DNA of 64,000 nt, taken from assembly GCA_029931535.1 (NCBI GenBank), contig JAQPZY010001495.1:2640001-2704000 (forward strand), in the 5' to 3' direction. This document shows, piece after piece, positions 2,690-62,636 of the stretch; position 1 is the stretch's first letter, and every line of letters begins with the position of its first letter. Source of the stretch: Margaritifera margaritifera. Lineage: Eukaryota; Mollusca; Bivalvia; Unionida; Margaritiferidae. A program made the translations under genes and the position numbers. The notes beneath the pieces were generated by a model, which saw only the letters and a program-made list of their open reading frames with translations, was not told the origin of the DNA and made no database searches.

Positions 2690-3260
2690 TGACGGCTAAT
2701 TAAAAACAGACTCGGGTTGAAATCGCCAAACAGGTACTCGCCAAATCTGAAAAAAGTGACCAGAGACGTTTGAATGAGATTCTCTTAGTTGCTTGGATTT
2801 CCTTTTCTGAAGCCGTCTCAAGAGAAAATATCATAAAGTTTGGATCGGTGAAAACGAGCAGAGACCAAAAATCGCTCGAGGTAGTCGCACTGTCAAGAGA
2901 GTTTTATGCGCATTTAGGTATCTATGCCTGACTCGTGTCACTGGACATTTTTATGCCACCAAAGTGTTGCCAAAACTTGTGGAACGCTACCGAACCATCC
3001 GCGCACCGGTACCAGAGGTATCCATCTACTCCATGACAACGCACCGGCGCATAAATCCGCCGTCGTGACAGACTTCCTGAAAGAGCACAGCATCCAAACT
3101 TTGGCACATCCTCCATTCATCCCTGATTTAACTCCCACTGAGTTTTGGCTGTATCCCGTTACGAAAAATTCGCTGAGAGGCAGACGATTTGAAAATCGCC
3201 ATGCCGGTTGGACGTACGACCAGAGTATAAATTACATACCAAAAATGTGAATAAATACAT
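2690..3260 (+). pseudogene. mariner-family transposase relic
   Basis: The best-preserved part (2924-3250) contains LLHDNAPAHKSAVVTDFL followed by a PPF-IPDL-P-EFWL block and SLRGRRFE. This is the signature of the C-terminal catalytic half of Tc1/mariner transposases, around the second and third acidic residues (HDNAPAHK, then SPDLxPxDFWLF in the family). The third acidic position reads TPTEF here. Upstream sequence from about 2690 gives weaker transposase-like pieces in other frames, with many stops. Intact transposases are about 340 residues; less than a third is readable. I did not find the terminal inverted repeats. This is a dead mariner copy. Confidence 0.85.
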
Positions 3261-24383: not shown

Positions 24384-24955
24384 ATGAAACAGTCGATGTT
24401 GATATGCATGAATATATATAAATTAAACAGTCGATGTTGATATGCATGAATATGTGTAAATTAAACAGTCGATGTTTATATGCATGAATATGTGTAAATT
24501 AAACAGTCGATGTTGATATGCATGAATATATGTAGATGAAACAGTCGATGTTGATATGCATGAATATATGTAAATGAAACAGTTGATGTTGATATGCATG
24601 AATATATGTAAATGAAACAGTCGATGTTGATATGCATGAATATATGTAAATGAAACAGTCGATGTTGATATGCATGAATATATGTAAATGAAACAGTCGA
24701 TGTTGATATGCATGAATATATGTAAATGAAACAGTCGATGTTGATATGCATGAATATATGTAAATGAAACAGTCGATGTTGATATGCATGAATATATGTA
24801 AATGAAACAGTCGATGTTGATATGCATGAATATGTGTAAATAAAACAGTCGATGTTGATATGCATGAATATGTGTAAATTAAACAGTCGATGTTGATATG
24901 CATGAATATGTGTAAATTAAACAGTCGATGTTGATATGCATGAATATGTGTAAAC
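24384..24955. repeat. Minisatellite, 38-bp unit, ~15 copies
   Basis: Tandem units of AAACAGTCGATGTTGATATG followed by CATGAATATATGTAAATG. Copies differ by one or two bases; the ATATG/GTGTG and AAATG/AAATT variants cluster at the array ends. All three minus-strand frames stay open through the array because 38 is not a multiple of three and the unit lacks stops. The resulting 130-residue repeat proteins are not real genes. Confidence 0.97.
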
Positions 24956-26057
24956 CTATAATGTAAAATTTATCTTTAAATTGTATGGACATTTTAGCAT
25001 ACATAACATAAACTTGTAAGGACCAGATTCAAATAGTTCCCTTCGAATTAGTCTCTAAAATACGTGCGGTTATGAATAACATTGGAGTGACTTGCCATAA
25101 AGCTTCGGGTAAACCGATGGGCAGGATATCTTTTATTAGAGGAAATGGCGATGTACAAATAAATCAGCTGTAAACAATCATCCCGCAGATTTTTTTTTCT
25201 CTGAATAATATGCTTTATTGAGATAAGTCATAAATTCCAAAAGGATGAAAAATATTATTTATAGTTTGGACCCTGAATGGGAAGCACGATTTAAGGAATC
25301 TACAAATTAAAATTTATTTTAAAAAAAGCAGTGATGGTGGTTTATTATGGATCGACGGGAAAAAAATAAGACGTACAAATAAATGCTTTATAGTTTTAAT
25401 AAAATACTTTCATTTTACTTGTCACAATCAAGGGTTTAAAAAATCCTGGCATAAATATTGATAAATTGAACTATAATGACATTGTTTGCAATTCACATTA
25501 TTTGACACATATCATCAGTAACAAATATTGTAAAGCAAATAAAAACCCTTAAAACAACTGTATTCCATCTTAAAATTCGAAAGGTATCTACTTTACATCT
25601 TTATTTCAAAGTAAATTTAATAAAGAAAGATATATATGTTTACCTTTCACACATTCAAACATTATTTAATATGTAAATATACCTACGCATAGACAAGATT
25701 ATGGATTGATACAAAGTTGTATGAAAAGATTCGAATAATAAAACAATATATGAAAACAAAATAGGTTGACAGACACATAGACAGATAGATGAATCGATAT
25801 ATAGATATATCGGAGGATGAATTTATCTTTATTCATATGTTAGAATATGATTGGGGAAATTCAACTTAGAAGGTTAAAAAGTATGACAAATATCAAGATT
25901 GAAAACAATTGCACATAATACAACAATACAAATTATTTTTTAAAGTCTAAAGAGTTGTAAACATTCATTAACGTATATGATATTTAAGTCCATGTTGTTA
26001 ATTTTCAATCGACTACATCACTCAAAATATCCACCTTCCATTTGAAAGGATATTATC
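24956..26057. other. 3' flank and probable 3' UTR of the GPCR
   Basis: AT-rich DNA downstream of the receptor stop codon. It contains a candidate polyadenylation signal (separate entry), short GATA-like repeats at about 25780-25810 and nothing else recognisable. Confidence 0.5.
25828..25833 (-). promoter_or_regulatory. Candidate polyadenylation signal of GPCR
   Basis: AATAAA on the minus strand, about 225 nt downstream of the receptor stop codon. This is a plausible distance, but AT-rich DNA yields this hexamer often. Confidence 0.35.
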
Positions 26058-26778
26058 TTATAAACGGGAAACTGTAGTCGGAGAGGAACTGATTTTCCGA
26101 GAAATAACCTTTGATTCAAATGACTCGAATAATACTTTCTGGTATGTTTGTGGCTTCTTAAGGCAAATAAAACAAAGATATTTCTTAAAATTTCTACGAA
26201 AATTTTGACTAAATATGCAGTAAAGCACAGGATTGGCGGCAGAATTAATATAGGAAATGACGTAACTGAAAACTTGCCATGACCATGTGACTTGAAACGT
26301 TCGTGGGGAAAGCGTGTTGTAGAGCATCAGTATTTGCGGTGGAGCGTAGCAAATGATATACACTAGCACACTGGCAACCAACATTTTTACTACATTTTTT
26401 CTTGCTTTAATGGTGTCCGTTGATCTGTCCATACGGCATTTAAAATCCGGGCGCATCTGGAACCGTGTATGCAATTCATCAGTGCTAGCATACAGTTTCC
26501 GTCCAATTACAGCGTATAGAATAATTTGTATGAACACTGGCACGAAGTAGAACAGAAGGAATTCCATGTATTGGAAAAGTATTAGGTTAGTAATGTGAGG
26601 AAAAACGATCATGCAATACTCGGCGCCCACTCCTGGATTACGTGACTGGACTGTGTTAAATATGACTGTCGGCATACCACACCCGATGGCTATTGGCCAG
26701 ACCAGCAGAACAGCAAAGATGATCTTACGTCGACCGCAGAGAATGTGGGCTTTAATTGGGTAAACGATGGCTACGAAT
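26058..26778 (-). CDS. Neuropeptide GPCR, exon 2 (TM4-TM7, C-terminus)
   Basis: Second coding exon of a rhodopsin-family receptor; with exon 1 it gives 412 residues. It begins after the acceptor CCCTTTTTCAG (AG at 26779-26780) and completes the Arg of the ERF motif, residues 172-174, the DRY equivalent that couples to G protein. It continues FVAIVYPIKAHILC, then TM4, the extracellular-loop-2 Cys (about 228) that pairs with Cys148, TM5, a basic loop 3, TM6 with CYAPP (316-320) in place of the usual CWxP, and TM7 NPVLY (355-359). It then gives SQNFRRNFKK and a Ser-rich tail. The IER-F/Y-xAI-xx-PIKAxxLC pattern and SQxFRxxF after TM7 recall thyrotropin-releasing-hormone receptors and related ecdysis-triggering/EFLamide receptors. 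The ligand is inferred only at family level. Confidence 0.92.
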
Positions 26779-27544
26779 CTGAAAAAGGGAAAAAAGGTAA
26801 GAAAGTTAGTATTGTTGAGGTTTCGTGTAGCAAATTATTTATCTACGTTTCGGAGCCATCTCGAAATTTAGTATTGGGTGTCCAGATTTCTCCATAAGTA
26901 TTACATATATGTGAAAGTTTCTGAATTATAGGTTTAAGACAATGTTGTATCATATAGGAAGCTGGTGATATAACAATTAAAAAAGAAAAAGGAAAAGTTA
27001 ATATAAAGCAATAATTCAAGCCATTTCCATCAAGCTATCCCCTTAATTCTCATGGTACCAAGATAAAGCACTCCGCTTTTATTGCCCTGTCTGTACCATC
27101 GAAGTCGCAGTGTTCCCCGGGTGTTACAGTTTTTAAGTGTCGATTTCTTTCATTTATTATGACATAGTATCAAGCTTTTTATGGCATTTAAAGATAACTG
27201 AAGTTAAGCATTCTCTGGTGTGTTATATGTTTTGTCAACCTGAGTGTGCGGCTCCATTCGAAGAAATTTTGCCATCGTTAATAATACAGTTCTCGAAAAT
27301 TCTATCATGATAAGTAATTTCGACATCAAACTATTGATTATTTTGAAGGTGATGAAATTCTTTCGCTGAAAATCGTAAACATCTCAGTCAAATCTAAAAA
27401 CCAGAAGTGTATCCTTTGGCAATCTTCTTTATTTATATTAATGTAAATGTCATTGTATTCCTTTCAGATATTCATAGGTTGTTATTACATGCATCAAAAC
27501 CTATAAATCATTATGTGAGTGTGAATATGAACGTGATTTTCTCT

Positions 27545-36144: not shown

Positions 36145-36313
36145 TTGGTATAATTTTTATGAACACATGACTCAAGTTTATTTTGGTGGTTATTAATCAC
36201 TCATCCTTTAATATTTCCTTCATAAAAAATATATTTTGCGTAACCCAATTTTGTTTTGCTCTAAGCTTACAATTATTCATTACCTTTCAAGTAAATTAGA
36301 CAAATTGACTCAC

Positions 36314-36831
36314 CTTTCGATACACACAGAAACAAGTGACAGGATTGACACGTACAAAGCCACGACGAGAAGGAATCTGTTGATCCTGCAGACAGCTGTT
36401 CCTAGGAGCCAGCCCCTATTCAGCATGAACTGTACGATTTCCGGTACACCGAAAATCATAATGAGGAAATCCGCAATAGCAAGGTTCGTTATGAAAATAT
36501 TAGTAACGGATTGCCGCATCTTTCGGTCCAGCAATACAACGATGATGACGAGACAGTTACCTAGAAGACCGACAGCTCCGATACAACAGAACAGAACAGA
36601 AAGAATAATCACGGCCTCATAGCTTGCTGGAGCCTTAAATTCATCTAGGCCAAAACTTTCATTTCGGTCAATTTCTCCAGATGGAGAGTTCACTATATCT
36701 GTCAAATTGCTCAGGACACTATTTGATGAGATGATGTTGATGTGATGGTTGAGCTGGAAGTCATCAGACATTATGCCCAGTAGCTGTTCACTGAGCTGAG
36801 TAACTAGATCTGCAGTAGAATTCAACGTCAT
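36314..36831 (-). CDS. Neuropeptide GPCR, exon 1 (N-terminus, TM1-TM3)
   Basis: First coding exon, from the ATG at 36831 to the donor after 36314. The extracellular N-terminus (residues 1-70) has three possible N-glycosylation sites, at Asn4 (NST), Asn42 (NLT) and Asn57 (NES). TM1 (about 72-101) carries the conserved GN at 91-92, TM2 the LAIAD motif (Asp121), and the loop before TM3 has W141 and the disulfide Cys148. TM3 ends in the E-R-F motif completed by exon 2. There is no cleavable signal peptide, normal for this class. The protein should sit in the plasma membrane of neurons or target cells and signal through a G protein on binding a peptide. TRH/EFLamide/ETH-receptor type is my best guess; other peptide receptors remain possible. 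An upstream non-coding exon cannot be excluded. Confidence 0.93.
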
Positions 36832-39545
36832 GTTTAAATCTGTTTTGGATTTTATAATATCAATACTCTATTTTTCATCAGTATAAAAACATTTAAATAA
36901 ATCGGGTTTCTTGTATGAAATTCGCTGAATTTATCTGATGGTGTACATTATCTTCCATTCACTCTAGTCCATCTATTTGCGAACCGCCGTATCAGTAGTA
37001 ATCATCTCAACGCAGTTGAGTTAATATTAGGCAGAAAACTTCCAATAATTTAAATCCTAGGAACACTGCCTACACTCTAAACAAGCACCTTGTAAAGTCA
37101 ATTTAAGTTTTGTGAGCTACTCTCAAAATATCTTTCACTAAATCTTGCTTTGTGAGAAAGCTGGAACGAAATGATATATATGTTACAAGTCTCTGATGTT
37201 ATAATCAAACACAAACTTTCTAAATATGAAAGTCAATGATTATCCAAAATTTACTCTGATGACTTATTCGAAACGTAATCGACATAAAATAAATTTAAAG
37301 CCAGTGAAGGTGTTTGGATGTATATCCTTTAAGAAGGAGAAAAGCCCAAGTCATATGTTTGATGGTGTCTACGCCAGTTCACGGAAGCCTAGTTTAGTCA
37401 GTCCGCCACTATCCAAGTCAAGCACGTTATTGATCTACTAAGAAGAATGAAACTGCTTCATAATCATAGGGTAATAATGTTGGCAGTACCAGCTACGCAG
37501 GGCAAGGTGTGGGCATTTACATGGTGCTCCTATGGAATGAACAGTACTATACCAGACATCTCTGGTGGCAAATTAGTAAGCCAATCTGCCAAAAAAACGT
37601 ACCAATCACTGCCGCAAGTAGGCATAACCTCTTAGTTTAGAGATACGAGACAGAATGAGAATACGAAATGATCTGGTTTCAAATTTTACTGGAAGGTTTT
37701 TTGTTAGAAAGAAGCCGTTACATATTCACCATTCCTCTGTGGCATTACATTCAATGATGCCTGTATTAGAAAATATTCCGAATGGGCTTAAACTATTTTT
37801 GAATTTCAAATTATCCCATAGGGCATAGGCAATGGTAGAGAATATACATGGTAGGGAGGTCTCATCAATTGTAGAAAATCCTGTTTTAAACAAAATCAAG
37901 TTCAAGAATGAAATAATTTGTTTCAGTTCCCAAACAGCAAAGGCTGCAATAATAGAATGGAAGACAAAAATGGGGATTTAGTCAAAAGTTTAAGATTTCC
38001 ATAGAAATGAAATCATACGGGTCGGAATAACGTTACTTGTATGTTAAGTTCATCCTAGACTATATTGTTCAATGTCTGGGGGGGGGGGGGGGACACAAGT
38101 CAGTGTGGCCGCCGTTACAAGAGTGGCAAAGGTATGATAATCTATTTAAGCCGCATATGGTGATACGGGTTGGAAAGTAATCTAATTGTAATGAATATGT
38201 TAAATTCATTGCAATTAGCACATCCGCTTTTGTAAGGTCGCTTTTCATTCTCCACCCAACTAAGTTGGTGTTGGAGGTGTAAACCGGTTTCGATAGTCCG
38301 TCCCTCCGTCCGTCACGCTTTTGTTTCTACAATGTGATTCCAACACCGTTCAAGATCTCTTTATGAAACTTGGCAGACGTATTAGACTAGTAGTCTAGCT
38401 GTGTCTTTTGCTATTAACTTTATTTAATGTTTGTGTTTTCGTTTTCTGTTCAATCATCGATCTATTATATATACATTCGTTTCCGAGGCAAAACTCTAAA
38501 ACTGTTAATATATTTCTATAAAATCTGGTACACATATTTTAATAGAGGGCCGAATGTACACTTGCTATTCACATTTCTTCAGATTAAATATTTTAAGTTG
38601 GGGCAAGTGATTTGTTTTAAAGACCCTTGCCCTGGGCCTGTGTCTGAAAAAATTATTTGAACACTAATCTCTCTAAGATTTGGCACACATATGAAATTAT
38701 TGTTGTAGATGTGTCTTTTGATATTCGCAATTCTTCAATTTCAATGTTTTTAAGGTTTCTATTCAATTGTGTATTCATCTATCCATCCACCATTCACCCT
38801 TTGTTTCTGGAGCAAATCTCATGATGCCTATCGCTTCCCTGTATACGTTGTAAATACAAACTTTGTATTATATGAAATCTTTGACAAATCCTTCTGTCTC
38901 CTAGCAAATATGTTGGCTCAGCGGGGTATATAGATTACTCCGTCTTCTTGTTTTGTTTTAATTTCAGAAGGAATTTCTCTGTCACTTGGAAATTTTCATA
39001 CACAACTAGACTGCACATCTTTCAGTGTTTGAACTTTAAAATTTACCTTTGGGCACAATTGATTTTAAAGCATTCCGTTGCACACCCACTTATGCAAAGT
39101 CGTTTTTTATTTCAGAAGGAATGTCTCTATCACAAAGAATATTTTAAGGTAAAAAACTGCACTTCCTTCATTATTCGAACTTTTAAATTCACATTTTTGC
39201 ATAACTGTGTAGTCCAGCAAGAAATGACCTAAAGAGGAAACAATCCTCAGTGGCATTTGTTGCGTCTTTAACGAAACACACATACATGATCTATGCATAC
39301 CATGACACATACATGACCTATGCATACCTACTGAAGGGTAAACCTCGATCTGTGTGCATCCCTTGTCCAAGTCCACAGACAGTGGAGGATATACTTGTTA
39401 AGCATATCGACAGCCATCCTGTAAGACATATTTGTTTTTTAAAGTCAACTCGATGAAGGAGCATTTTGATGCTGTTCCACCAAACGAAATCATGCACTTT
39501 CTAAGAGAATGCGATTTATATAACATATTTTGATTCTATATTTTA
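36832..39545. other. GPCR upstream region, no gene recognised
   Basis: Contains a run of 15 G at 38078-38092. A plus-strand decayed coding-like stretch at about 37640-37980 (RNDLVSNFTGRFFVRKKPLH in one frame) may be the end of a retroelement protein, but I cannot name it. No promoter element stands out upstream of the receptor ATG. Confidence 0.45.
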
Positions 39546-39800: not shown

Positions 39801-40194
39801 CATATTTTGACTATATTTTAAGGATTTTACTTATTTTATCTTTCTCTATTATTGTATATAGCCTATAAAGAACTCGAACATTTTTTAAAAATTATCTTTT
39901 AACTTAACGATTACACATTTCCTTTTATTTAAATAAGTTTATCTTCCTTAAGATTTTAGCAGTTTCTTTTTTTTTTTTTTTTTTTTGTCACAGCTTTACT
40001 TTTTCTTGGCAGTATGTAGCCAGAATTGTGTCGATGTGCCGTTAACCCCCATGCATACATACTTTTAAAAAAATTGTGTCGGACATTACATTCCCATATT
40101 TGCGTCATTATGACTCCCACAGTCTGGGTTTGTATTCATGGTGTAAACTTCAAATTTCATAAAGTATATCCTTCGCACGTAGTTCTGCATGAAA

Positions 40195-40525
40195 ACTTAG
40201 TATACTTCAACATATCAATTCCAGTCAAACTTAGTATACTTCAACATATCAATTCCAGTCAAATACAGGTGGAAATGGTTTGTATACTTCAACATATCAA
40301 TTCCAGTCAAATACAGGTGGAAATGGTTTGTATACTTCAACATATCAATTCCAGTCAAATACACGTGGAAATGTTTTGTATACTTCAACATATCAGTTCC
40401 AGTTAAATACACGTGGAAATGGTTTGTATACTTCAACATATCAATTCCAGTTAAATACACGTGGAAATGGTTTGTATACTTCAACATATCAATTCCAGTC
40501 AAATACACGTGGAAATGGTATGCTC
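40195..40525. repeat. Minisatellite, 48-bp unit, ~7 copies
   Basis: Unit TATACTTCAACATATCAATT followed by CCAGTCAAATACAGGTGGAAATGGTTTG, with a shorter 34-bp first unit. Because 48 is a multiple of three and the unit lacks stops, open frames run through on both strands; I regard these as artefacts. Confidence 0.97.
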
Positions 40526-41066
40526 TCCAGTTGTTATAAAAAATAAAGTGTACAAAACATCTCAACAAATGCAATTAAATATTGTTCAATCCGAGATGGT
40601 CAAAGTCGAATGTGTGGAAGCCATAATTGATAATGTACAATAGAAACTGTAAAAACAGCATTTTAGGGTCTCACTGAAGCGAACATATAAGAATCAGCCG
40701 CGATTATTTTTTCTCTCTTTTGTTAATCTTATGAAACTGATTAAACCGACTTGCCGACGTTTGAGGTAGGTATGTTTAAAATAAGTACTTTAATTTCAAA
40801 TCCAAATAAAATAAACTGCAAGTAAAACAATGATATTCAGTTTGATCGATCACACTAAACACATATATTGTACCTATGTACAGTACCATTTACAGTTGTA
40901 TCGCTTTTCCATATTGTACTGTATTTCCTGTCAGAGTTTAATATGCTTATTTCGGCATGTTCATTGTTCAAGACAGTCGTGCTTCATTTCGCTTAAAATG
41001 AATTTTAAACCGTGTTTGAAGTGTCATTCTTCATGTAAATTTCCATTTCATGCATTCTTTTGGTTT
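40526..41066. other. No feature seen
   Basis: AT-rich spacer between two minisatellites. Confidence 0.5.
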
Positions 41067-50595: not shown

Positions 50596-53500
50596 CTAGG
50601 CACGTGAGAGTGCATCTGCAATCACATTGTCTTTTCCCCTGATGTGTCTGATGTCAATGTTATATTCCTGCAATATCAAACTCCATCTCAACAATCTCCG
50701 ATTTTTATCTTTCATTTTGTTGATGAAAGTAAGGGGATTGTGATCACTGTACACAATAATTGGAGAAAGAGCTGAGGTAACATACACTTCAAAATGCTGT
50801 AAAGCCAATATCAAAGCCAAACATTCCTTCTCAATTGTGGAATAATTTTTCTGGTGCTTGTTTAGTTTTTTAGAAAAATAACACACAGGGTGATCCACAC
50901 CACTTTTGTCTTCCTGAATCAATACTCCACCAACCACTACATCACTTGCATCAACAGATAATTTAAATGATTGGCTAAAATTTGGTGCAGAGAGAACTGG
51001 TGCATTCTTAAGCATGGCCTTTAACTTGTCAAAAGATTCCTGACACTTGTCAGACCAATGAAATTTGGTTTTCTTACTCAATAAACTTGTCAAAGGTTCA
51101 GCAATTTTGGAAAAATTGGAACAAAATTTCCGATAATATCCAGCCATACCTAGAAATCGCATCAGTTGCTTTTTACAAATTGGAACTTGAAATTCAGAGA
51201 TAGCTTTGACCTTAGCTTCTATAGGTTTAACTTGACCTTGTCCCACAATATGTCCTAAAAATGTGACACAAGCATGGCAAAACTCACTTTTGCTCAAATT
51301 AATTGTCAGATTCGCATCGCTGAGTCGATCAAAGAATTTTCGAATGGTTTCCAAATGATCTTCCCAGGTGTTTTTGTAGATAATGACGTCATCGATATAA
51401 GCGTCACAATTATCAAGACCAAATGTTATCATGTTCATCAGACGTTGAAACGTTGCAGGCGAATTTTTCATTCCAAACGGCATGACTTTATATTGATAAA
51501 GTCCATCTGGAGTTACAAATGTTGAAATTTCTTTTGCCCTTTCCGTCAGTGGAATTTGCCAGAATCCTTTTAAAAGGTCAAACTTGGTGACATATTTAGC
51601 ATTTCCAATTTTATCAATGCAATCGTCCATTCTTGGGATTGGAAATGAATCAGTTTTGGTGACACTGTTGACTTTTCTATAGTCAGTACACATACGGAAT
51701 GTATTATCTGGCTTGGGAACAAGAATACATGGTGAACTCCAGTTACTTTTACTTGTTTCTATGAAATCATTCTCCAGTAAATACTGAATTTCTTTCTTCA
51801 AATAGTTCTGTTTGAGAGGATTCATCCTATAAGGATGCTGTTTCACAGGCGCAGAATCTACAATGTCAACGTCATGATAAATTTTACTTGTTCGTGTTGG
51901 AACATCAGGAAACAAGTGCTCATATTCATATAATAGCTGTTTTAGTTCATTTCTTTCCTGTTGTTGTAGATGTGAAAGTTTCTGGTCTAGGTTGTTCAAT
52001 ATTTCTGAATTCCGAAGATTGGTTATACCAGAGTCACTATAGTCTGATCGTACTCCATCGTTGATATCTTCACTGTGTGGGACAGGTACAACTAAATTAA
52101 CTAAATAATTAGCTGAGCTATCTCTGTCAAAATATTCCTTTAACATATTTATATGACAAAGTTGTTTCTGTTTCCGTCTCCCAGGAGTGTTAATGATATA
52201 ATTTAAGTCATTTACTTTCTTTTCAACGGTATAAGGACCATAAAATTTAGCCTGAAGAGGATTCTGAGATATGGGAAAGAGAGCCAGAACTTTGTCACCA
52301 GGTTTAAAACTCCTTTCCTGTGAATTTCTGTCATACCTTAATTTCATTTTTGACTGGGTAGTGTGAAGATTAGTTCTTGCTACTTCACAGGCCTTTGACA
52401 ACTTGTATTTGAAATCAGAAACATAATCAAGAAGATTAATCTTTGAATCTTCATTTGAAAGAAGTTTCTCTTTCAATAATTTCAATGGTCCACGGACAGT
52501 ATGACCAAAAACTAGTTCAAAGGGACTAAAACCCAACGACTCTTGAACTGATTCCCTAACAGCAAACAACAACAAATGAACACCCTCATCCCAATCCTTT
52601 TCTGTATCAAAGCAATATGATCGAATCATATTCTTCAAAGTTTGATGAAATCTTTCCAAAGCACCTTGACTTTCAGGGTGATAGGCAGAAGATTTAAACT
52701 GTTGGATGCCTAATTCATGCATAACTTGTTGGAAAATTCCAGACATAAAATTTGACCCTTGATCTGACTGGACAGATTTGGGAAGGCCAACAAGTGTAAA
52801 AAACTTCACCAAAGTTTTCACAATAGTTTTAGTTTTTATATTTCTCAGAGGAATTGCCTCTGGAAATCTTGTAGATGCACACATGATGGTCAATAAGTAT
52901 TGGTTGCCTAACTTGGTTTTAGGTAAAGGACCAACACAGTCTACCATTATTCTACTAAATGGTTCATCAAATGCAGGAATAGGTTGCAGATAAGCCTTAG
53001 GTATCTTCTGATTGGGTTTTCCTACCATTTGACAAGTGTGACAAGATCTGCAGTATTTAGAAACATCACTTTTGAGTTTCGGCCAATAAAAATGATTCAA
53101 GATCTTGTGATAAGTCTTACGGACTCCTAAATGACCAGCCAAAGGAGTTTCATGGGCTAAATTAAGAATTTCCTGTCGATATGACTTAGGAACAACAATT
53201 TGATAGCTCACTGACCACTCGTCACCAGCGGGTACCTCAGGTGGTCTCCATTTCCTCATAAGGACCCCATTTTTCACAAAGTAACACACTGGAACTTGTG
53301 TGGCTTCAGTTTCACTAATAGCCCTCTGAAACAAACAAGATATCTCGGGATCTTGCTCCTGTTCAACGACAAGGGATTGTCGTTTGTCACCCTGAGTAGG
53401 ACAAAGAGAATGAGTTGCCAAAAGAGGATCACTGTGATCAATACCATTTGATTGATCAATACCTGAGGAAAAAGTGACCTCATCAAAAAACTGACCAATA

Positions 53501-54378
53501 CATGTGCCAGCTAAAGGAATAATATCCTGATCAACATCACTCTCAAGAGCTCTTTTTGCCATAGCTCTAGTAACTGCACAAGCAGGGTACAAATCAGGGA
53601 TTTCAGTTTCGACAGGATCAACTTTCTGATCCAAACAAGGCTTGTCAGTTACAAGTGGATTAACCACAACCTTATCTCCAGCTAGGTCATTGCCTAGTAA
53701 TAAATGAACACCCTCTATGGGTAAAGAAGTCACTGCCCCAACAGTCACAGGTCCAGAAACTAAGTCTGATGCCAAATTTACACAATGAAGAGGAACATTT
53801 ACAAAGCCGCACTCAACTCCCTGAACAAGAACACTTTCACTTGAAGAAGACTTCTCAGACAAAGGCAAAGTACCTGACAATAAAAGACTCTGAGAAGCTC
53901 CAGTGTCCCTTAATATTTTAATTGGGATAGGTTTGGCAGAATCACCAATAAGTGATATAGAACCTTCTGACATGAATGGTTCATAAGCCTCTAAAATAGA
54001 ATCAGACTGGGGTTTGTTTGACCCAACAAATGTATTGCTTTCAATACAAGACCGTGACCTTGACCTCGTAGAAATAAGAGCATTTGGAAAAGCTCTGTCT
54101 TTTCTCTGTTGCTTATTTTTCAACTTGAAGCAATCAGAAATAACGTGCCCTTTCGTTTTACAATAAGTGCACGTAGGAAGAGATAAGGATTTCTGATCAG
54201 TCTTATCAGATGTTTGATTCCTAACAGTTGTGCTGTTGTGAACTTTGGAAGTACTCGAATGAGATTGAAATGGTTTTTTACCAGAAAACTGCTGAGAGGA
54301 CGACTTATTGCCAAATGAAATTTTGTGAGTCAAGGAATAATCATCAGCCATACGAGCAGCATTTTCCAAAGTTTCCAC
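50596..54378 (-). CDS. Pol polyprotein (CCHC, protease, integrase, RT, RNase H)
   Basis: An uninterrupted 1260-codon frame. Residues 70-83: CCHC zinc knuckle (CTYCKTKGHVISDC), the end of Gag. 158-160: protease active site DTG in LRDTGASQSLL. 409-449: integrase zinc domain, His409/His416 and Cys446/Cys449. Integrase core Asp480, Asp539 and Glu575, with 35 residues between the last two (DDE). About 695-750: C-terminal integrase module with FYGPYTVEKKV. RT follows, with YRKVNSVTKTDSFPIPR (about 900-916), FDLLKGFWQIPL and YIDD at 994-997. RNase H has Asp1143, Glu1185, Asp1212 and Asp1255. All catalytic residues seem present. Integrase before RT is the Gmr1-like hallmark. The ATG used is an internal one; in the element the frame continues from Gag, upstream of two stop codons. 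Confidence 0.95.
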   Translation of the reverse strand: METLENAARMADDYSLTHKISFGNKSSSQQFSGKKPFQSHSSTSKVHNSTTVRNQTSDKTDQKSLSLPTCTYCKTKGHVISDCFKLKNKQQRKDRAFPNALISTRSRSRSCIESNTFVGSNKPQSDSILEAYEPFMSEGSISLIGDSAKPIPIKILRDTGASQSLLLSGTLPLSEKSSSSESVLVQGVECGFVNVPLHCVNLASDLVSGPVTVGAVTSLPIEGVHLLLGNDLAGDKVVVNPLVTDKPCLDQKVDPVETEIPDLYPACAVTRAMAKRALESDVDQDIIPLAGTCIGQFFDEVTFSSGIDQSNGIDHSDPLLATHSLCPTQGDKRQSLVVEQEQDPEISCLFQRAISETEATQVPVCYFVKNGVLMRKWRPPEVPAGDEWSVSYQIVVPKSYRQEILNLAHETPLAGHLGVRKTYHKILNHFYWPKLKSDVSKYCRSCHTCQMVGKPNQKIPKAYLQPIPAFDEPFSRIMVDCVGPLPKTKLGNQYLLTIMCASTRFPEAIPLRNIKTKTIVKTLVKFFTLVGLPKSVQSDQGSNFMSGIFQQVMHELGIQQFKSSAYHPESQGALERFHQTLKNMIRSYCFDTEKDWDEGVHLLLFAVRESVQESLGFSPFELVFGHTVRGPLKLLKEKLLSNEDSKINLLDYVSDFKYKLSKACEVARTNLHTTQSKMKLRYDRNSQERSFKPGDKVLALFPISQNPLQAKFYGPYTVEKKVNDLNYIINTPGRRKQKQLCHINMLKEYFDRDSSANYLVNLVVPVPHSEDINDGVRSDYSDSGITNLRNSEILNNLDQKLSHLQQQERNELKQLLYEYEHLFPDVPTRTSKIYHDVDIVDSAPVKQHPYRMNPLKQNYLKKEIQYLLENDFIETSKSNWSSPCILVPKPDNTFRMCTDYRKVNSVTKTDSFPIPRMDDCIDKIGNAKYVTKFDLLKGFWQIPLTERAKEISTFVTPDGLYQYKVMPFGMKNSPATFQRLMNMITFGLDNCDAYIDDVIIYKNTWEDHLETIRKFFDRLSDANLTINLSKSEFCHACVTFLGHIVGQGQVKPIEAKVKAISEFQVPICKKQLMRFLGMAGYYRKFCSNFSKIAEPLTSLLSKKTKFHWSDKCQESFDKLKAMLKNAPVLSAPNFSQSFKLSVDASDVVVGGVLIQEDKSGVDHPVCYFSKKLNKHQKNYSTIEKECLALILALQHFEVYVTSALSPIIVYSDHNPLTFINKMKDKNRRLLRWSLILQEYNIDIRHIRGKDNVIADALSRA

Positions 54379-54399
54379 TTTCTGCTCGTCAAGATAGGT

Positions 54400-55292
54400 T
54401 TTAACATCACTATGGATGCACCTCTTGAACTCTTCAATTAATACGAGCTGTCGGAGGTTATCATAACCTTGATCAACTTTCTTGGCTGAGCACCACCTAT
54501 CAAATAGTTATTCTTTATCCCTTGCAAATTCGACATGAGTTTGTCAAGTTTCTTTTCTACAATTCCTAAACCTTTGTCGATATGCCTCTGGTACCAACTC
54601 ATAAGCTTTCAAGATGTACTCCTTAACCACATCATAATCAGTGCTTTGTTGTACTGATAGTGAAATGTAGACTTCACGAGCTTTGCCAATAAGTACACTT
54701 TGTAATAACAAAGTCCAATGCTGTCTGGGCCATTTCAAGTTTTCAGCTATTTTCTCGAAATGAAGAAAGTATTTATCTACTTCTTTTTCCTGAAAAGGGG
54801 GTACTAACCTAATATATCTAGTAACATCAAAACCTGAACTTGTGTTTAAAGGAGTGGAGTGTGCTCTGTTTGCCAGTTCTAATTCTCTTAACTTAAATTG
54901 CATTTCCCTTTCTTCTCTTTGCATCTGCATCTGCATTTGTATTTGCCTCTCTTCCTTCTGCATTTGTAGCTGCCTCTCTTCTTTCTCTCTCTCTCTCTCT
55001 GAATCTGAAGCTTTGCCAATTCTAAATCCATCTGGTTCTTTAACTCTAATTCCCTTTATTTCCTGTCAGAACCAGATACAGGCTTTCTCTTCGAACTTAA
55101 TGCACTACTATCAAAATTTTCCTTTCCTACTAAATACTGAATTAAAATAATCTTTATCTCCTGTTTTGTCAATGATACTTTTGCCTCAGATAGACTGTAT
55201 TTTCTGGCAAGCTCGAGCAACTCATCCTTTCTCATGCACTCTAACCCCTCCTGGGTAGGTTTTGAAATGAAATTCTGAACATTAGATGCCAT
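54400..55292 (-). pseudogene. Gag of Gmr1-like element, broken
   Basis: Gag starts at the ATG at 55292 and should run in frame into pol. It is interrupted by TAA at 55056-55058, a frameshift in the (CT)8 tract near 54988-55003, TGA at 54544-54546 and TAA at 54508-54510. After the frameshift, the remaining gag is in the same frame as pol. The first part has KDELLELARKYSLSEAKVSL, then comes a Gln/Glu/Arg-rich coiled-coil region (MQMQMQREEREMQFKLRELE), then a domain with YIRLVPPFQEKEVDKYFLHF and LLLQSVLIGKAREVY, which resembles the SCAN-like capsid fold of related retroelements. Gag would package the RNA in a cytoplasmic particle. This copy cannot make it without help. Confidence 0.85.
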
Positions 55293-55428
55293 TGTAAATG
55301 CTTCTTGGTTTCACACACAAAAAATGTCTCTATTAAAAATCTTTGCCAAAGACAAAAAAAATTCTCCGAGACAAAATCAATATGAATTTCAAAAATAACT
55401 TTAATATCTCTAAAATGCTTTAAAGAAA

Positions 55429-55459: not shown

Positions 55460-56210
55460 TGTTACGACTCTATGGTCTAAGAAAAATGTAACAGAAAGAA
55501 AGTGAAACCAACAAATCAAGTAAAAAAAATCAACAAGCAATTTATTACTAGATAATTAAAATGAAAAATCAAAAAAGTCACTTACAGTAATGTGTTTTGA
55601 AATCCTAATAATCCAATAAGAATGATTGTTCTAATCACAAGTCCTAAATATAGAATGTTCCGAATTCACGGCTGTGTCCTTGAATGTTATGATGTGCTCA
55701 TGGTCTCCAAAGTCCTGATGTACTAGAAATCTTGATGTGCTGATGTCAAAATGAAGTATTCCAAAATCTCTGAATAAGTTCAGTTAAATTCCAAAATCAT
55801 TAATTAAAAATCCAAAATCCAAAAGTTTATGAGCACTGTTATAATCCAATGAATATTTAAAATAATTCCTCTCTTAGAATTTGGAATGAATTTTCACAAC
55901 TGTAATAGCTCTTTACAAGACTGATGGTAATGTCAAAACTGAATAAATGTCCACCAAACATGGCATATATAAAGATTGGTCACATGACAGAATGTTCTAG
56001 AATATGAGTCATCTTAATGGAATTTTTACTTGTAAACAAAAATCAACCTTGACCTTCAAATTGAGAAAATATATTGATCAAAACAACCTAATTCAAGGAC
56101 ACTAGTTAAACATGTTTTTCCTGATAACATTAAGATTTAAGCAAATATTAAAGTGAAGAAACATTTATAATTTCCTAAAATATTTATAATATTATATAAA
56201 CATCATACAT

Positions 56211-56214
<4 letters not shown>
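55460..56214 (-). repeat. 5' LTR of Gmr1-like element
   Basis: 755 bp; promoter-bearing LTR for minus-strand transcription. It is identical to 49703-50457 except at five positions. A TTTATATATG sequence at 55964-55973 may be the TATA box. Confidence 0.97.
55964..55973 (-). promoter_or_regulatory. Candidate TATA box in 5' LTR
   Basis: TTTATATATG on the minus strand, about 240 nt into the LTR, with the LTR's AATAAA about 420 nt downstream. Position and sequence are plausible; the start site is not known. Confidence 0.35.

Positions 56215-56276
<62 letters not shown>
56215..56276. repeat. (AT)n microsatellite, right flank of LTR element
   Basis: About 62 bases of TA repeats abutting the 5' LTR, the other half of the tract at 49639-49702. 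Confidence 0.95.
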
Positions 56277-56282
<6 letters not shown>

Positions 56283-58469: not shown

Positions 58470-60240
58470 AATTGTATTATAAAGTTGGAGTGGACGGTAG
58501 TAGACAAGACCGACGCGGTAAAGACAGAATTACAAAGGCAAAAAGGTGGTTGAAATTAAGCGCGATAAGAAACGTGAACTTCATACTGGTATTGACAATT
58601 CTTACTGTGAGAATGCTTAACATGTGATTGCAGTAGTGTACGGCCTCTACCCCTGTCGAGAGGCCGGCAACCTGGTCCATTTAATGGACGGCGACCTTAA
58701 CAGCGTACGGTAGACCACTTTGAAAACGCCATCAGAGGCCAAGGCTTTACGGAATCCCGCCGTAAAAAAATTACTGAATGGGAAAGGCGAGTCAACGAGA
58801 CAGATGTAACCATCAGCAACATGGCCGAGCTAGAAAGAATCCTCTGGTGTGTAGTTATATTGAAGGACGTAGCCGGTGATGATATTTATTGCCGGAGGGG
58901 GGGGGGGGCTGCAATAGAGCTCATCGTCTAAAACGGCCACTCCTGGCCAAAAAACTCTCCACTTTCCATCACTCTGTGAGCGAAGCAGCGTTGAGTACTA
59001 CGAGGGCGACACCTTGGACGCTATTCAGCGGATTACGGAAGGCGAGCCAAAGGCAGTTTGGGTTCTTGGCAGAGGAAACGACAAAAAACTAGATCCTAAA
59101 ATTGTGGAGAAGTTTATGCTGGCCTACGGTAGGTGCTTCAGAACCCGGGAGAAGCACCTGCAGATTATCAAGGTCTGCAGCAAGTGCACAGATAACTCTG
59201 ACGAGTTGGCGACCAAAGCGAGGCCTCGCAGCTGCTTGTGTTATTCGAGTGCGAAACGGCTGGAAACCAACCCTCGCGGCGATGCTTTAGGACATCCAGC
59301 TGGCATGCGTCGAGTTTGGAAATGGGGGTCTTTGGAATAACCCTTATGGTTACAAGGTGTCTGAGATTTTGAGACTGGACATGGCCGCCTGCTACCCCGG
59401 CAGTGTCTTGGGCATGGAAGAGTGTTCCCAATACTTTACCGTTTTGACCACCCGTGAAGCGGATAGACCCGGGTAGCTATTAACGGACCACTCACTCAAG
59501 ACCTAATGGAATTTACACAGCTGCGGTCGTGCCACCCAGTCATCCCCGGCTGGTTTGGACGTCACTTTAGCAAGTCTAAAGAAAATGAGACTGCCCGCAA
59601 CAAGCGCGGCTGGGCTGCAAATGCTCTACAACAGTTTATGGTTGAGAAGGGCGTGCTCATGTACCTCGAGGTGACCGAGACCATTATCTCCTATAAGAAA
59701 CGTACCAAAGTATGGCTTCCGCAGAACAAGGAAATTGATGGCATTATCATAGGTGACGTTTCAGCCAGTATTGCTAACGGATGCTAGCGCATGACGCGCC
59801 AGATAATTGCTGATTGGGGCGAGCTAAACATTTTCGTGCGCCACAGCCGTGCAACCAACTTCCGGGTTGGTTATGTCAAGGCGCCCCTCCGGGACATCAT
59901 TACTTACTGCAACGGCTCACAGCAGCAGTACACGCACCTCCGGGCCTCCATGCTTGGCTATGTTGGCATTATCCTTATAAGCATGCTGCAAAGGTTTCCT
60001 ACTGAGGCCGTACGGGTGGCGACGGACTTACATCAAGCGGAGCACCTGGCCTGTCTAGAAGGATGCGCTTCGCGTGCCAATGCAAAAGAAGAGCCCATTT
60101 GCCACGAATGCGCCGCCCTTGTATTCAAAGACCATGACAGCAAGCAACAGACTGTTTCTGGGAGAATGGAATGTTAAGGATGAGAAGCTTCTGGCCCCCA
60201 ATGACAGTGCAGCCTACATACTCAAGCCCGAGTATTAGAC
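58470..60240 (+). pseudogene. Family-B-like DNA polymerase relic (virus/self-synthesising transposon type)
   Basis: Coding remnants in a GC-richer block, in several frames. From 58720 to 59092 frames give GFTESRRKKITEWERRVNE and then DAIQRITEGEPKAVWVLGRG. At 59357-59440 comes VSEILRLDMAACYPGSVLG, like polymerase motif A (catalytic Asp at 59378-59380, followed by the CYP of DxxxxYP). At 59506-59784 are NKRGWAANALQQFMVEKGVL and GDVSASIANGC, with a TAG at 59785-59787. The frame then continues in phase to 60177 with WGELNIFVRHSRATNFRVGY and FPTEAVRVATD (Asp 60025-60027), in the place of motif C. At least one frameshift (about 59220-59290) and several stops are visible. The polymerase identity rests on these two motifs in the right order and is inference. 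There is no close family I can name. Confidence 0.6.
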
Positions 60241-60244
60241 ATCG

Positions 60245-61370
60245 AAACAACAAGTGCCAGACTCAAAAGCTTCGAGGACAGATGATATGCTGCCAACGCA
60301 CCGTCTTTTCTGCCTCAATGGAGGAGGTTCTGGCAAGACCACAAGAGCAATCGCCGTGTTTTGTAACCGCAATCCACTTATTCTTACCCAGACACCCCTA
60401 CTCGCAAATGAGGCGTAGTGTCAGTACGGCGTCAATATAAGCGAACAAAGCTACCATAGCTTCTTTCACTGAAACCGCCGAAAGGAATGCACGCCAGTAC
60501 GTATGGGTCAAAAATACATTCCGTGGGTTATTATTTGGGACGAGATTTGCACAGTCCCTCTCCCATTCTTGAGACCTTTCTCGAATGGGTAGAGATGTGG
60601 GGCGTTCAAGTGATCTTCTGTGGTGACCATGGCCTACCGCCACCCATAGCTGAAGAGTTGCTGCACGAGTATGTTGACCACAATAAAGAGGTAAAAGAAC
60701 ACTACTGTGCCAAGGACTAGGCCCTTAGAGGTCTAAGAAAGAGGATGTGTCTCAAATTTGACCGAGTTCAGTGCCAGGAGATGCGCAAGGTCTCTACTGT
60801 CTGTCGTGGCTGGAGTTTCTTTCTGGAACAGTGGAAGTCAACCGACACGCTCTTGGTTTCTCGCACAGCTGTGAGTGACAGTGCACAGGAAACACCTATT
60901 CGAGCGACACAAAAAGCACTTTTCAGACATGCCGGTCCCACTCTTGTACCATCCACAGGACAGTCGGTGTCAAAATATTTTGTTCGTGTTGCATGAACAA
61001 ACGAGCAGCAGGAGCTTGTTCTAAACGAAATTGTTGAGGTGAGCGTTACAACTGCCGAGCACGCTTTTGTCATACCATCCACAGACTGGTGTTTTGTCTA
61101 TGCAATTACTGGGCACAGCTCTCAGACGTTTACCATCAAATACCAGCGCAAGGTATGGATTGTCGACGATTACCTCCAATGGTCCAACCTCGCGTATTTG
61201 GTTATTTCCCGCGTGGACTATCTGTCTCAACTCGAGCGAGTCCCTTCGCCACCGGCTGAGAGGGCCGAAGTTAAGCGGACATCTAAGGAGCAAGAAATCA
61301 TCCAGATCATACAGAAAAAGAACATCGCATATAAGCACCATGACCAAGCCAATGGTTTCCTCTGTTCCAT
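60245..61370 (+). pseudogene. SF1 (Pif1/RecD-like) helicase relic
   Basis: All diagnostic helicase motifs occur in order. Walker A GGGSGKTT is at 60320-60343 (in CLNGGGSGKTTRAI); the DE box is at 60539-60544 in IIWDEICTV. CGDHGLPPPIAEELL (60622-60645 core) is motif III, and YAITGHSSQT (61099-61128) is motif V. NLAYLVISRV (to 61215) is motif VI. Walker A and the DE box are in one frame and motifs III, V and VI in another, so there is a frameshift between 60545 and 60620. Stops lie at 60718-60720 and 60994-60996. It continues in frame from the polymerase remnant side and into the HNH remnant, implying one multidomain protein. In a living element it would unwind DNA during replication. Confidence 0.8.
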
Positions 61371-61620
61371 CGAAAAGACAAGCACACTCAAGGTGGACGA
61401 CGTTCTAAGGCTTAATGAGCACCAAAATAACCGCTGTGCCGCCTGCAACATCGAAATGCTCTGGGCTTACGAGCCAAAAGGCACATAACAGTTCAGTGTA
61501 GATTGTCTGGACATCTCCAAGGGGCACTCAAAGGGCACTGTGAGGTTGCCCTGTTTGGAGTGCAACGCAAAAGAGCGGCTGTCGGAAAACGGGAACAGCG
61601 GGAACGACTGTCGGAGAACG
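61371..61620 (+). pseudogene. HNH endonuclease domain relic
   Basis: In the same frame as helicase motifs V and VI. LNEHQNNRCAACNIEMLW holds the first Cys pair (61435-61446). After a TAA at 61486-61488, QFSVDCLDISKGHSKGTV holds the Asp/His region (His 61525-61527). CLECN (61552-61566) is the second Cys pair. Spacing and residues fit a zinc-stabilised HNH nuclease, the beta-beta-alpha metal fold. It ends with a Lys/Arg/Asn-rich tail. HNH at the C-terminus of a polymerase-helicase polyprotein is uncommon and is the main reason I do not call this a standard Polinton. Confidence 0.75.
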
Positions 61621-61639
61621 AGTAAGAACAACAGACGGC

Positions 61640-62560
61640 AGGCTTTGACCTCAGCGACGTGTATCTTGACTGAGGACTGGGCCTGGTGGTAGTTGTGTGT
61701 CAGGGAGCAAAAAAACTGCAACTCCGTACGCGCTGCACCGTAGGAGGTAAGCAGATAATACAGTAAGGGCGAGCCGGTTTTAGCAACCGCAGTCTCTAAC
61801 CTGCATACCTTTACGGACCACACAGGGTCTTTGGCGCAACGTTACCCGCCTTCCAGCTCTCCCGGTGCATATAGGTACCGCATCAAGGTATCTGAGGGCA
61901 GGTGTTTCTCTTCCAGACCGACCAGTCTTTTCACGATTGGCATAAATAGGTCTTTTGTTACCCTGCCGCTTAGGGTGGTCACAACAGCCGAACACCGGCA
62001 AACCCACTGAGTGTTACGCGCGCTTGGAGTCGTTTCGACGGTGGAAAGAAGAATCTTCTAGGCATACTGTTACCTAAAGAGCCGCACGGCCAGAATACGG
62101 TTGATCCGTTCCACAATGCCTGCGCGCGGTGATTGCCGGTCTCACCCTGCCTCACCTGCACGCTGTGATTGGCCAAGAGTTGCGACGCAGCGCCCATAAA
62201 CACCGACTGGGGTCAACCTGCAGCGCTTTAAACGGCTCCACTTGTAGATACGTGCCAAATCGTCAGAGACTTTGGAAGCCTCCTTTGTGGCCAAGGTCTC
62301 GGCCTCCTTGAAACGCATAAATGTACGCTGTATCACCCAACCTTGTCGTGCAGCAGAAATAAGAGGTAAGCCTAGTGCACATTGTTAGGGGTTGAAATTC
62401 TAAATAACGGCCAGGGGATTATGCACGGTGCCGGCAGGTAAATCTGACACATGGCCTCCTTCTTGAGACACGCCCTGGCAACATCTTGTGAGACTTTCTC
62501 CCAGCTTCTTGACCACTGCCACGCCCTTCCAGTAACCTCTCGAGCTGTAGTATATTGCCG
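61640..62560 (-). pseudogene. Retroviral-type (DDE) integrase relic, convergent with helicase-HNH
   Basis: On the minus strand, about 62125-62080 reads GIVERINRILAVRLFR, equivalent to the VERFNRTLKxRL helix carrying the catalytic Glu in retroviral and Polinton integrases. Downstream come VVTTLSGRVTKDLFMPIVKR (about 61950), MRYLYAPGELEGG, then, after a stop, DPVWSVKVCRLE and LLYYLLTSYG (61760-61880), a C-terminal DNA-binding-like region. Upstream pieces to 62560 (such as FMRFKEAETLATKEASKVSD) fit the catalytic core weakly. Stops are frequent. It ends tail-to-tail with the HNH remnant, about 20-60 bp apart. Integrase plus DNA polymerase on one unit is the hallmark of self-synthesising transposons and related viruses. 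Confidence 0.6.
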
Positions 62561-62636
62561 CAAGCTTAGAATCCATTGCGTTATGTGGTTTTTAAACGTT
62601 TAGCAGTTTGCCGTCCTTTGTCGTTCCGTAACTCTG

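What the first reader, a model, noticed from the sequence alone, without database searches (positions are those of the whole stretch)
58470..62560. GC-rich relic joining polymerase, SF1 helicase and HNH, with a convergent integrase
Seen: helicase motifs I, II, III, V and VI in order, an HNH Cys/His pattern in the same frame downstream, polymerase-like motifs A and C upstream, and on the opposite strand a VERINRIL integrase block. Known: Polintons and virophages pair a family B polymerase with a retroviral-type integrase, but to my knowledge they do not carry a polymerase-SF1 helicase-HNH fusion in this order. Inference: this is a relic of a distinct self-synthesising transposon or endogenised DNA virus lineage, brought in with its own base composition. 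It is the best candidate here for something undescribed.
Basis: partly seen in the sequence, partly recalled or inferred. Interest (0 to 1): 0.88.

Follow-up and report, generated by a model that had tools for sequence, protein, structure and literature searches.

The report
Decayed Polinton-like virus in animal DNA
This stretch looks like a broken, truncated copy of a virus-like mobile element whose fused copying-and-unwinding enzyme resembles one described from viruses of single-celled organisms, and the same animal-like genome carries many more copies, some with that enzyme's gene unbroken.

Summary
Window 58483-62628 is a GC-rich relic (about 50% against about 33%) holding, on +, polymerase-like motifs A, B, C, SF1 helicase motifs and HNH, and on - a retroviral-type integrase. 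Of 120 window fragments, 16 align collinearly to proteins of a better-kept relative, L040, in the same genome; reversed fragments, none. L040 has an unbroken 1172-aa polymerase-helicase-HNH frame, a convergent (broken) integrase, a DUF5679-phospholipase A2 protein and a Pox_A32-type ATPase. Copies are many (159 matches, 150 of 1096 candidates scored); two duplicate-related loci have inverted repeats 13.2-13.6 kb apart. So the parts form one element.

The fusion is not new: Tlr1-like helicases (pPolB palm-SF1 helicase, C-terminal HNH or GIY-YIG) are described from polinton-like viruses and transpovirons, and the Tlr1 element has such an integrase (PMC11071308). The animal host and gene set may be new; seven literature searches listed no such report. 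The palm rests on motifs; no capsid gene was proven; kinship with Tlr1 was not tested.

The parts
58483..62628 (.). whole relic: truncated copy of the element; no terminal inverted repeat kept
   Evidence: homology to other copies stops at about these limits; other copies extend further on both sides; GC profile
58701..58928 (+). replicase, region upstream of the palm (matches residues 230-292 of the 1172-aa relative)
   Evidence: blastp E=4e-9; matches pieces in other copies
58918..59337 (+). replicase, region upstream of the palm (residues 327-386)
   Evidence: blastp E=1.5e-6; matches pieces in other copies
59291..59473 (+). polymerase palm motif A-like (DMAACYP at 59378-59398; residues 433-480)
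   Evidence: blastp E=7e-18; motif
59467..59784 (+). polymerase part between motifs A and B (residues 490-572)
   Evidence: blastp E=1e-17
59788..60174 (+). polymerase motif B-like (59935-59955) and motif C variant A-T-D (60013-60027); residues 609-691
   Evidence: blastp E=1e-15; profile of this and six copies' pieces finds 74 proteins of 1269 candidates at E<=1
60239..60415 (+). SF1 helicase motif I / Walker A (60326-60343); residues 746-796
   Evidence: blastp E=4e-9; AAA_30 and AAA_19 in the relative
60473..60589 (+). SF1 helicase motif II (60530-60544); residues 820-848
   Evidence: blastp E=2e-11
60460..60717 (+). SF1 helicase motif III (60619-60633); residues 845-898
   Evidence: blastp E=1e-10
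60875..61021 (+). helicase, between motifs III and V (residues 957-997)
   Evidence: blastp E=1e-9
60997..61485 (+). SF1 helicase motifs V and VI and first half of the HNH domain (residues 993-1136)
   Evidence: blastp E=3e-29; 65 homologues; model of homologue P0037 matches SF1B helicases and HNH nucleases
61489..61689 (+). second half of the HNH domain (second Cys pair 61552-61566; residues 1141-1168)
   Evidence: blastp E=5e-7
62375..62599 (-). integrase, N-terminal part
   Evidence: blastp to relative's integrase E=3e-7; overlapping fragment 62403-62591 E=3e-7
62145..62384 (-). integrase, core
   Evidence: matches copies' pieces L010:993-1448(-) and L026:9601-9999(+), which score rve E=0.0036 and 1.7e-6; no homologue of its own in the protein database and no row against L040
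61982..62212 (-). integrase, core before the VERIN block
   Evidence: blastp E=2e-7
62100..62114 (-). VERIN block (integrase catalytic Glu region)
   Evidence: motif; same block VERFN in L040
61845..62057 (-). integrase, C-terminal half incl. YLYAPGELE (61851-61877)
   Evidence: blastp E=3e-10; motif
61470..61841 (-). integrase, C-terminal end
   Evidence: blastp E=6e-7

Best explanation
The window holds a decayed, truncated copy of an endogenous polinton-like element (virus or self-synthesising transposon). Shown: a fused replicase gene (polymerase-like motifs, SF1B-type helicase, HNH nuclease) and a convergent retroviral-type integrase, with many related places in the same genome, some with the replicase frame unbroken; terminal inverted repeats on other copies; packaging-ATPase and phospholipase A2 genes in one relative. 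Inferred: the palm copies the linear element from its ends (protein-primed, as proposed for Tlr1-like helicases), the helicase opens the duplex ahead of it, the integrase inserts the product into chromosomes, and the ATPase packs it into particles. The window copy is broken in both genes and lacks both ends, so it can no longer do this.
For: Replicase and integrase collinear with a better-kept relative. Helicase: Pfam AAA_30 5e-11 and AAA_19 1e-10, above their cut-offs; RecD 0.0034 and PIF1 0.0087 in the PDB by sequence. Helicase plus HNH by fold of homologue P0037: viral HNH nucleases from E=5e-6 in BFVD, Dda 0.0078, PacI 0.012 with probability 1.00, RecD and Pif1 in the PDB; Pfam HNH weakly in 6 of 24 homologues, best E=0.0036. 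Fusion: polymerase motif C and Walker A in one frame in homologues P0102, P0116, P0125 and in L040. Integrase: rve E=1.7e-6 in copy L026, 28.6 bits against a cut-off of 32.6, that piece in turn matching L040's integrase; D and E 34 residues apart in L040. Inverted repeats 73-76% identical over 206-234 bp. Pox_A32 8.5e-11, Phospholip_A2_4 6.7e-12, DUF5679 2.2e-11, all above cut-off, in L040. Copy number: 52 DNA matches with 40 of 374 candidates scored; 159 protein matches with 150 of 1096 scored.
Against: No Pfam DNA_pol_B hit on any polymerase piece or on the 1172-aa protein, none in the PDB for the polymerase profile, and the one polymerase model was useless (pLDDT 42), so the palm rests on motifs and position. 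No PDB fold match of P0037 reached E<=0.001. L040's own integrase pieces gave no rve hit. No capsid, minor capsid or Ulp1 protease was identified; 92 of 177 conserved pieces were scanned. ATPase and PLA2 were seen only in L040, with no match among the fragments of the ten copies of the window's subfamily. No C715-type terminal repeat was found in L040, though it may lie just outside the stretch fetched. One of ten copies (L020) shows no integrase side.
Confidence: 0.85

Rival explanations
1. A canonical Polinton/Maverick or adintovirus relic with a complete family B polymerase, misread because of decay.
For: Same integrase type, terminal inverted repeats, packaging ATPase.
Against: The unbroken 1172-aa relative gives no DNA_pol_B hit, has A-T-D in motif C, and carries an SF1 helicase and HNH in the same chain.
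Confidence: 0.05
2. A transposon without capsid: a self-synthesising element that only copies and inserts itself, never forming particles.
For: No capsid gene was identified; high copy number and scattered fragments.
Against: A relative carries a Pox_A32-type ATPase and a phospholipase A2-like gene, which in known viruses serve packaging and entry (recalled); conserved unidentified genes lie on the right side of the element.
Confidence: 0.2
3. Two unrelated insertions: a helicase-HNH element beside an integrase from another transposon.
For: The two genes are convergent and on opposite strands; 1 of 10 copies lacks the integrase side.
Against: 9 of 10 copies keep homology on both sides in the same order and orientation, and the better-kept relative has the same order.
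Confidence: 0.02

Closest known systems
Tlr1 element of Tetrahymena and other polinton-like viruses with 'Tlr1-like helicases' (PMC11071308: section 10 and passages read)
   Same: Fused polymerase palm and SF1 helicase in that order, C-terminal HNH (or GIY-YIG), first Asp of motif C replaced; Tlr1 also has a retroviral-type integrase.
   Different: There described from a ciliate, algal viruses, metagenomic viruses and transpovirons; here in an animal-like genome, with a DUF5679-phospholipase A2 gene in a relative. Direct sequence relationship to Tlr1 was not tested: no Tlr1 sequence was at hand.
Polintons/Mavericks and adintoviruses of animals
   Same: Retroviral-type integrase, terminal inverted repeats, packaging ATPase, animal hosts.
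   Different: Their pPolB is organised TP-vOTU-exonuclease-palm, at times with inserted homing endonucleases (PMC11071308, passages); a fused SF1 helicase is not part of that plan. Here no pPolB profile match was found.
OmPLV of Oxyrrhis marina (PMC12721341: abstract and passages read)
   Same: SF1 helicase fused to pPolB in an endogenous polinton-like virus.
   Different: Reverse order (helicase N-terminal), complete pPolB with exonuclease, and RVE integrase not detected there.
Transpovirons
   Same: Encode Tlr1-like helicases (PMC11071308, passages).
   Different: 7-kb DNA episomes associated with giant viruses (PMC7031253, start of abstract in search listing).

Membership tests
Tlr1-like helicase (pPolB-S1H) | SF1 helicase C-terminal to the polymerase part in one chain | tested here: met
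   L040 1172-aa frame; AAA_30 at 756-911 after motifs A-C at 460-691; homologues P0102, P0116, P0125
Tlr1-like helicase (pPolB-S1H) | family B protein-primed palm domain | tested here: inconclusive
   motif-like A, B, C in order (identification of the motifs partly recalled); no Pfam DNA_pol_B hit; model pLDDT 42
Tlr1-like helicase (pPolB-S1H) | first Asp of motif C (DTD) replaced | tested here: met
   V-A-T-D-S in L040; A, T and D invariant or at least 90% conserved in the homologue alignments; provided this is motif C
Tlr1-like helicase (pPolB-S1H) | C-terminal HNH or GIY-YIG nuclease (in members described) | tested here: met
   HNH: weak Pfam hits in 6 of 24 homologues (best 0.0036); viral HNH nucleases and PacI by fold
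Tlr1-like helicase (pPolB-S1H) | vOTU and further N-terminal domains upstream of the palm | not tested
Tlr1-like helicase (pPolB-S1H) | groups with Tlr1, TvV-S1 and transpoviron proteins in a tree | not tested
   no such reference sequences were obtained; seven IMG/VR scans gave no family member (one search gave phage Pif1-like helicases, a chance hit)
Polinton-like virus (Preplasmiviricota) | double jelly-roll major capsid and minor capsid proteins | tested here: inconclusive
   conserved unidentified pieces such as L014:3439-3846(-); no capsid profile hit in 92 of 177 conserved pieces; no IMG/VR relatives; search of own genome did not complete
Polinton-like virus (Preplasmiviricota) | packaging ATPase (A32/FtsK-HerA type) | tested here: met
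   Pox_A32 8.5e-11 in L040 only; no match among fragments of the window's subfamily
Polinton-like virus (Preplasmiviricota) | Ulp1-type protease | tested here: inconclusive
   no hit in 92 of 177 conserved pieces or in five L040 proteins; not every piece was scanned
Polinton/Maverick | retroviral-type (rve) integrase | tested here: met
   rve in 3 of 92 pieces, best E=1.7e-6, below Pfam's curated cut-off; L040's pieces have no rve hit of their own but match these pieces and have D-x34-E
Polinton/Maverick | terminal inverted repeats | tested here: met
   two duplicate-related loci on contig C715, 13.2 and 13.6 kb; C367 has both ends about 6.2 kb apart (coordinates); absent from the truncated window copy
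Polinton/Maverick | complete pPolB with exonuclease, without fused SF1 helicase | tested here: not met
   the one unbroken protein read has a fused SF1 helicase and no DNA_pol_B or exonuclease profile hit; a divergent exonuclease in its N-terminal part is not excluded

The most novel reading that the evidence does not exclude
An undescribed animal lineage of polinton-like viruses that replicate with a fused protein-primed polymerase-SF1 helicase-HNH enzyme (in the papers seen, described from protist viruses and transpovirons), integrate with a retroviral-type integrase, carry a phospholipase A2-like gene, and have colonised this genome repeatedly over a long time, with some replicase genes still unbroken and so possibly recent.
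Probability: 0.5. Interest if true: 0.7.

Novelty: new variant of a known kind. Interest (0 to 1): 0.55.

Why it matters
If true, the Tlr1-type replication module is not confined to viruses of single-celled hosts and giant-virus parasites but has invaded animals, with well over a hundred matches in one genome, old and apparently younger. That gives a fossil record and unbroken proteins for asking whether the Tlr1-like palm, once suggested to be inactive (PMC11071308), is an active polymerase, and it bears on how polintons, polinton-like viruses and animal DNA viruses exchanged genes.

Tried and rejected
Pfam on the window's own pieces gave nothing usable. Seven IMG/VR scans found no family member: searches gave nothing; one search's single hit L029 was chance; one search's three hits are phage helicases sharing motifs V-VI (ORFs; 'Pif1-like' recalled). 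One GTDB scan gave nothing, the other one 3152-bp contig filed under an archaeal MAG, taken as contamination. The integrase piece 62145-62384 found no protein homologue. The polymerase model had pLDDT 42 and was not used. Stretches downstream of other copies were fetched to look for a capsid gene; none was recognised, and the C961 relative falls back to host-like GC soon after its ATPase. Single weak Pfam hits on right-side pieces, among them RVT_1 (9.7e-5, on L014:3439-3846), DUF2878, 7tm_2, Vps52_CC and C2, and one PHROGs hit at 0.0048, were not followed. A terminal repeat in L040 was sought and not found. Rejected: canonical Polinton; two unrelated insertions.
Full report
WHAT IS THERE. The window lies in a 2.45-Gb genome (G000, contig C1151). 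It looks animal: two parts of a rhodopsin-type GPCR (7tm_1) and a DDE transposase piece, and a Gypsy-type retroelement. The species was not identified. Over 59001-62000 GC is 49-52%, against 25-41% in the other 1-kb windows outside the relic.

CHECK OF THE OBSERVATION. On + they lie in two frames, with stops between, so the gene is broken. Fragment 60997-61485 found 65 homologues among 116 candidates; in an alignment of 24 rows the motif V-VI residues are among the invariant ones. A profile of the motif B-C fragments found 74 proteins at E<=1 among 1269 candidates, the weakest at 0.24. Most hits are unnamed; 4 of 65 and 23 of 74 bear the name of Thiodiazotropha MAGs. That these are DNA of bivalve hosts is my inference (recalled: symbionts of lucinid clams).

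ONE PROTEIN. Three database homologues (P0102, P0116, P0125) carry motif C and Walker A in one frame. In the same genome, homologue P0001 gave 159 matches with 150 of 1096 candidates scored (not all rows were listed). Ten listed matches lie in frames of 1000 aa or more; six of these have no stop in the matched part, and four of the six (C961, C501, C1559, C408) match nearly to P0001's end. Only one, at C961 (L040), was read: a 1172-aa frame with motif A at residue 460, B at 661, C at 688-692, helicase motif I at 765, II at 832, III at 862, V at 1025, VI at 1057 and HNH cysteines at 1123 and 1162. Pfam finds AAA_30 and AAA_19 above cut-off and no DNA_pol_B; the PDB finds RecD and PIF1 by sequence. 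A model of homologue P0037 (pLDDT 75.8) matches viral HNH nucleases (35 BFVD matches at E<=0.001, not all HNH) and, more weakly, SF1B helicases and PacI in the PDB (best E 0.0078).

ONE ELEMENT. Of 120 window fragments, 16 match L040's replicase (11) or integrase (5), in order within each gene; reversed fragments match none. Of ten other copies (the ten best-scoring after the window), 9 keep homology over 70 bits on the integrase side and 7 over its core; L012 and L018 keep only the C-terminal side and L020 none. rve is recognised in 3 of 92 pieces, best 1.7e-6, 28.6 bits against a cut-off of 32.6. L040's own integrase pieces have no rve hit but match these pieces, and their D and E are 34 residues apart. 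In L040 the integrase lies in two frames and the copy ends soon after its ATPase, so L040 is not an intact element.

ENDS AND SIZE. Inverted repeats were found at the left side of four copies and the right side of four, six copies in all. Two have both: C715, 13.6 kb apart, and C367, about 6.2 kb apart by the coordinates. A second C715 locus, seen, has both 13.2 kb apart, but the flanks of the two C715 loci also match (93% over 1003 bp left, 84.5% over 789 bp right), so they are duplicates of one insertion. A genome search with the repeat gave 41 matches, 40 of 46 candidates scored. Exact termini and target-site duplications were not resolved. The window copy has no such repeat.

OTHER GENES. 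L040 carries a DUF5679-phospholipase A2 protein and a Pox_A32 packaging ATPase; that this PLA2 type occurs in parvoviruses is recalled. The right side of the window's own subfamily has conserved, decayed genes, with BclA_C-like hits in 3 of 92 pieces, below cut-off. None is recognised as capsid, ATPase or protease.

AGE. In DNA the longer matches (about 350 bases and up) are 68-76% identical to the window copy; short pieces reach 94%. This suggests old insertions. The six unbroken frames of 1000 aa or more are 45-56% identical to P0001 in protein. More than one wave of insertion is inference.

WHAT IS KNOWN. PMC11071308 (section 10 read; passages) describes Tlr1-like helicases as pPolB palm-SF1 helicase fusions with C-terminal GIY-YIG or HNH and a changed first Asp in motif C, and says that the Tlr1 element encodes RVE-INT. 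Our proteins have A-T-D there. PMC12721341 (abstract and passages) reports the reverse fusion. PMC10120064 (passages) says that Cnidarian capsid genes were the only metazoan ones outside its main Maverick-Polinton cluster. PMC11071296, a survey of animal viruses, has no occurrence of 'Tlr1', 'superfamily 1' or 'HNH'. Passages of PMC4642659 and PMC10328495 did not mention the fusion in animals. The listings of seven searches showed no report of it in an animal genome; most listed papers were not opened, subscription papers are missing, and Krupovic et al. 2016 was not held.

VERDICT. A genuine, multi-copy, Tlr1-type polinton-like element, here as a dead fragment. The architecture is known; the lineage in this animal-like genome appears unreported in the papers searched. 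Membership in the Tlr1 group is likely but unproven, because neither the palm fold nor a tree was obtained.

Noticed in passing
window 50596-55310 (-): Gypsy-type retroelement with a 1303-aa open frame in which the integrase (residues 439-611) lies before the reverse transcriptase (930-1088) and RNase H, the reverse of usual Gypsy order (Gmr1-like; order and name recalled).
   Followed up: partly
window 55461-56277 and L015:1-813: 97.6% identical repeat, also about 8 kb upstream of another helicase copy (contig C72); probably a terminal repeat of the retroelement.
   Followed up: no
window 26061-26834 (-) and 36313-36867 (-): Two parts of a rhodopsin-type GPCR (7tm_1; profile 75-260 and 1-83), apparently two exons of one gene.
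   Followed up: partly
window 2918-3247 (+): DDE_3 transposase fragment (mariner-like, recalled).
   Followed up: partly
G000:C1157:6326899-6363599: Seven matches to part of the terminal repeat at even spacing of about 6.1 kb: apparently a tandem array that has amplified a piece of the element.
   Followed up: no
L033 (3152 bp): A decayed copy of the replicase sits in a contig filed under a Diapherotrites archaeon MAG; 4 of 65 and 23 of 74 protein homologues are filed under Thiodiazotropha MAGs. Likely eukaryotic contamination.
   Followed up: partly
L041:1455-1777 (-): A second integrase relic (41-49% identical to L040's) lies beside open frames without Pfam hits, downstream of the replicase at C501; possibly another polinton-like element.
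   Followed up: partly
window 24423-24969 and 40020-40574: Open frames made of short repeated units in several frames, so probably tandem repeats; no repeat finder was run there.
   Followed up: no
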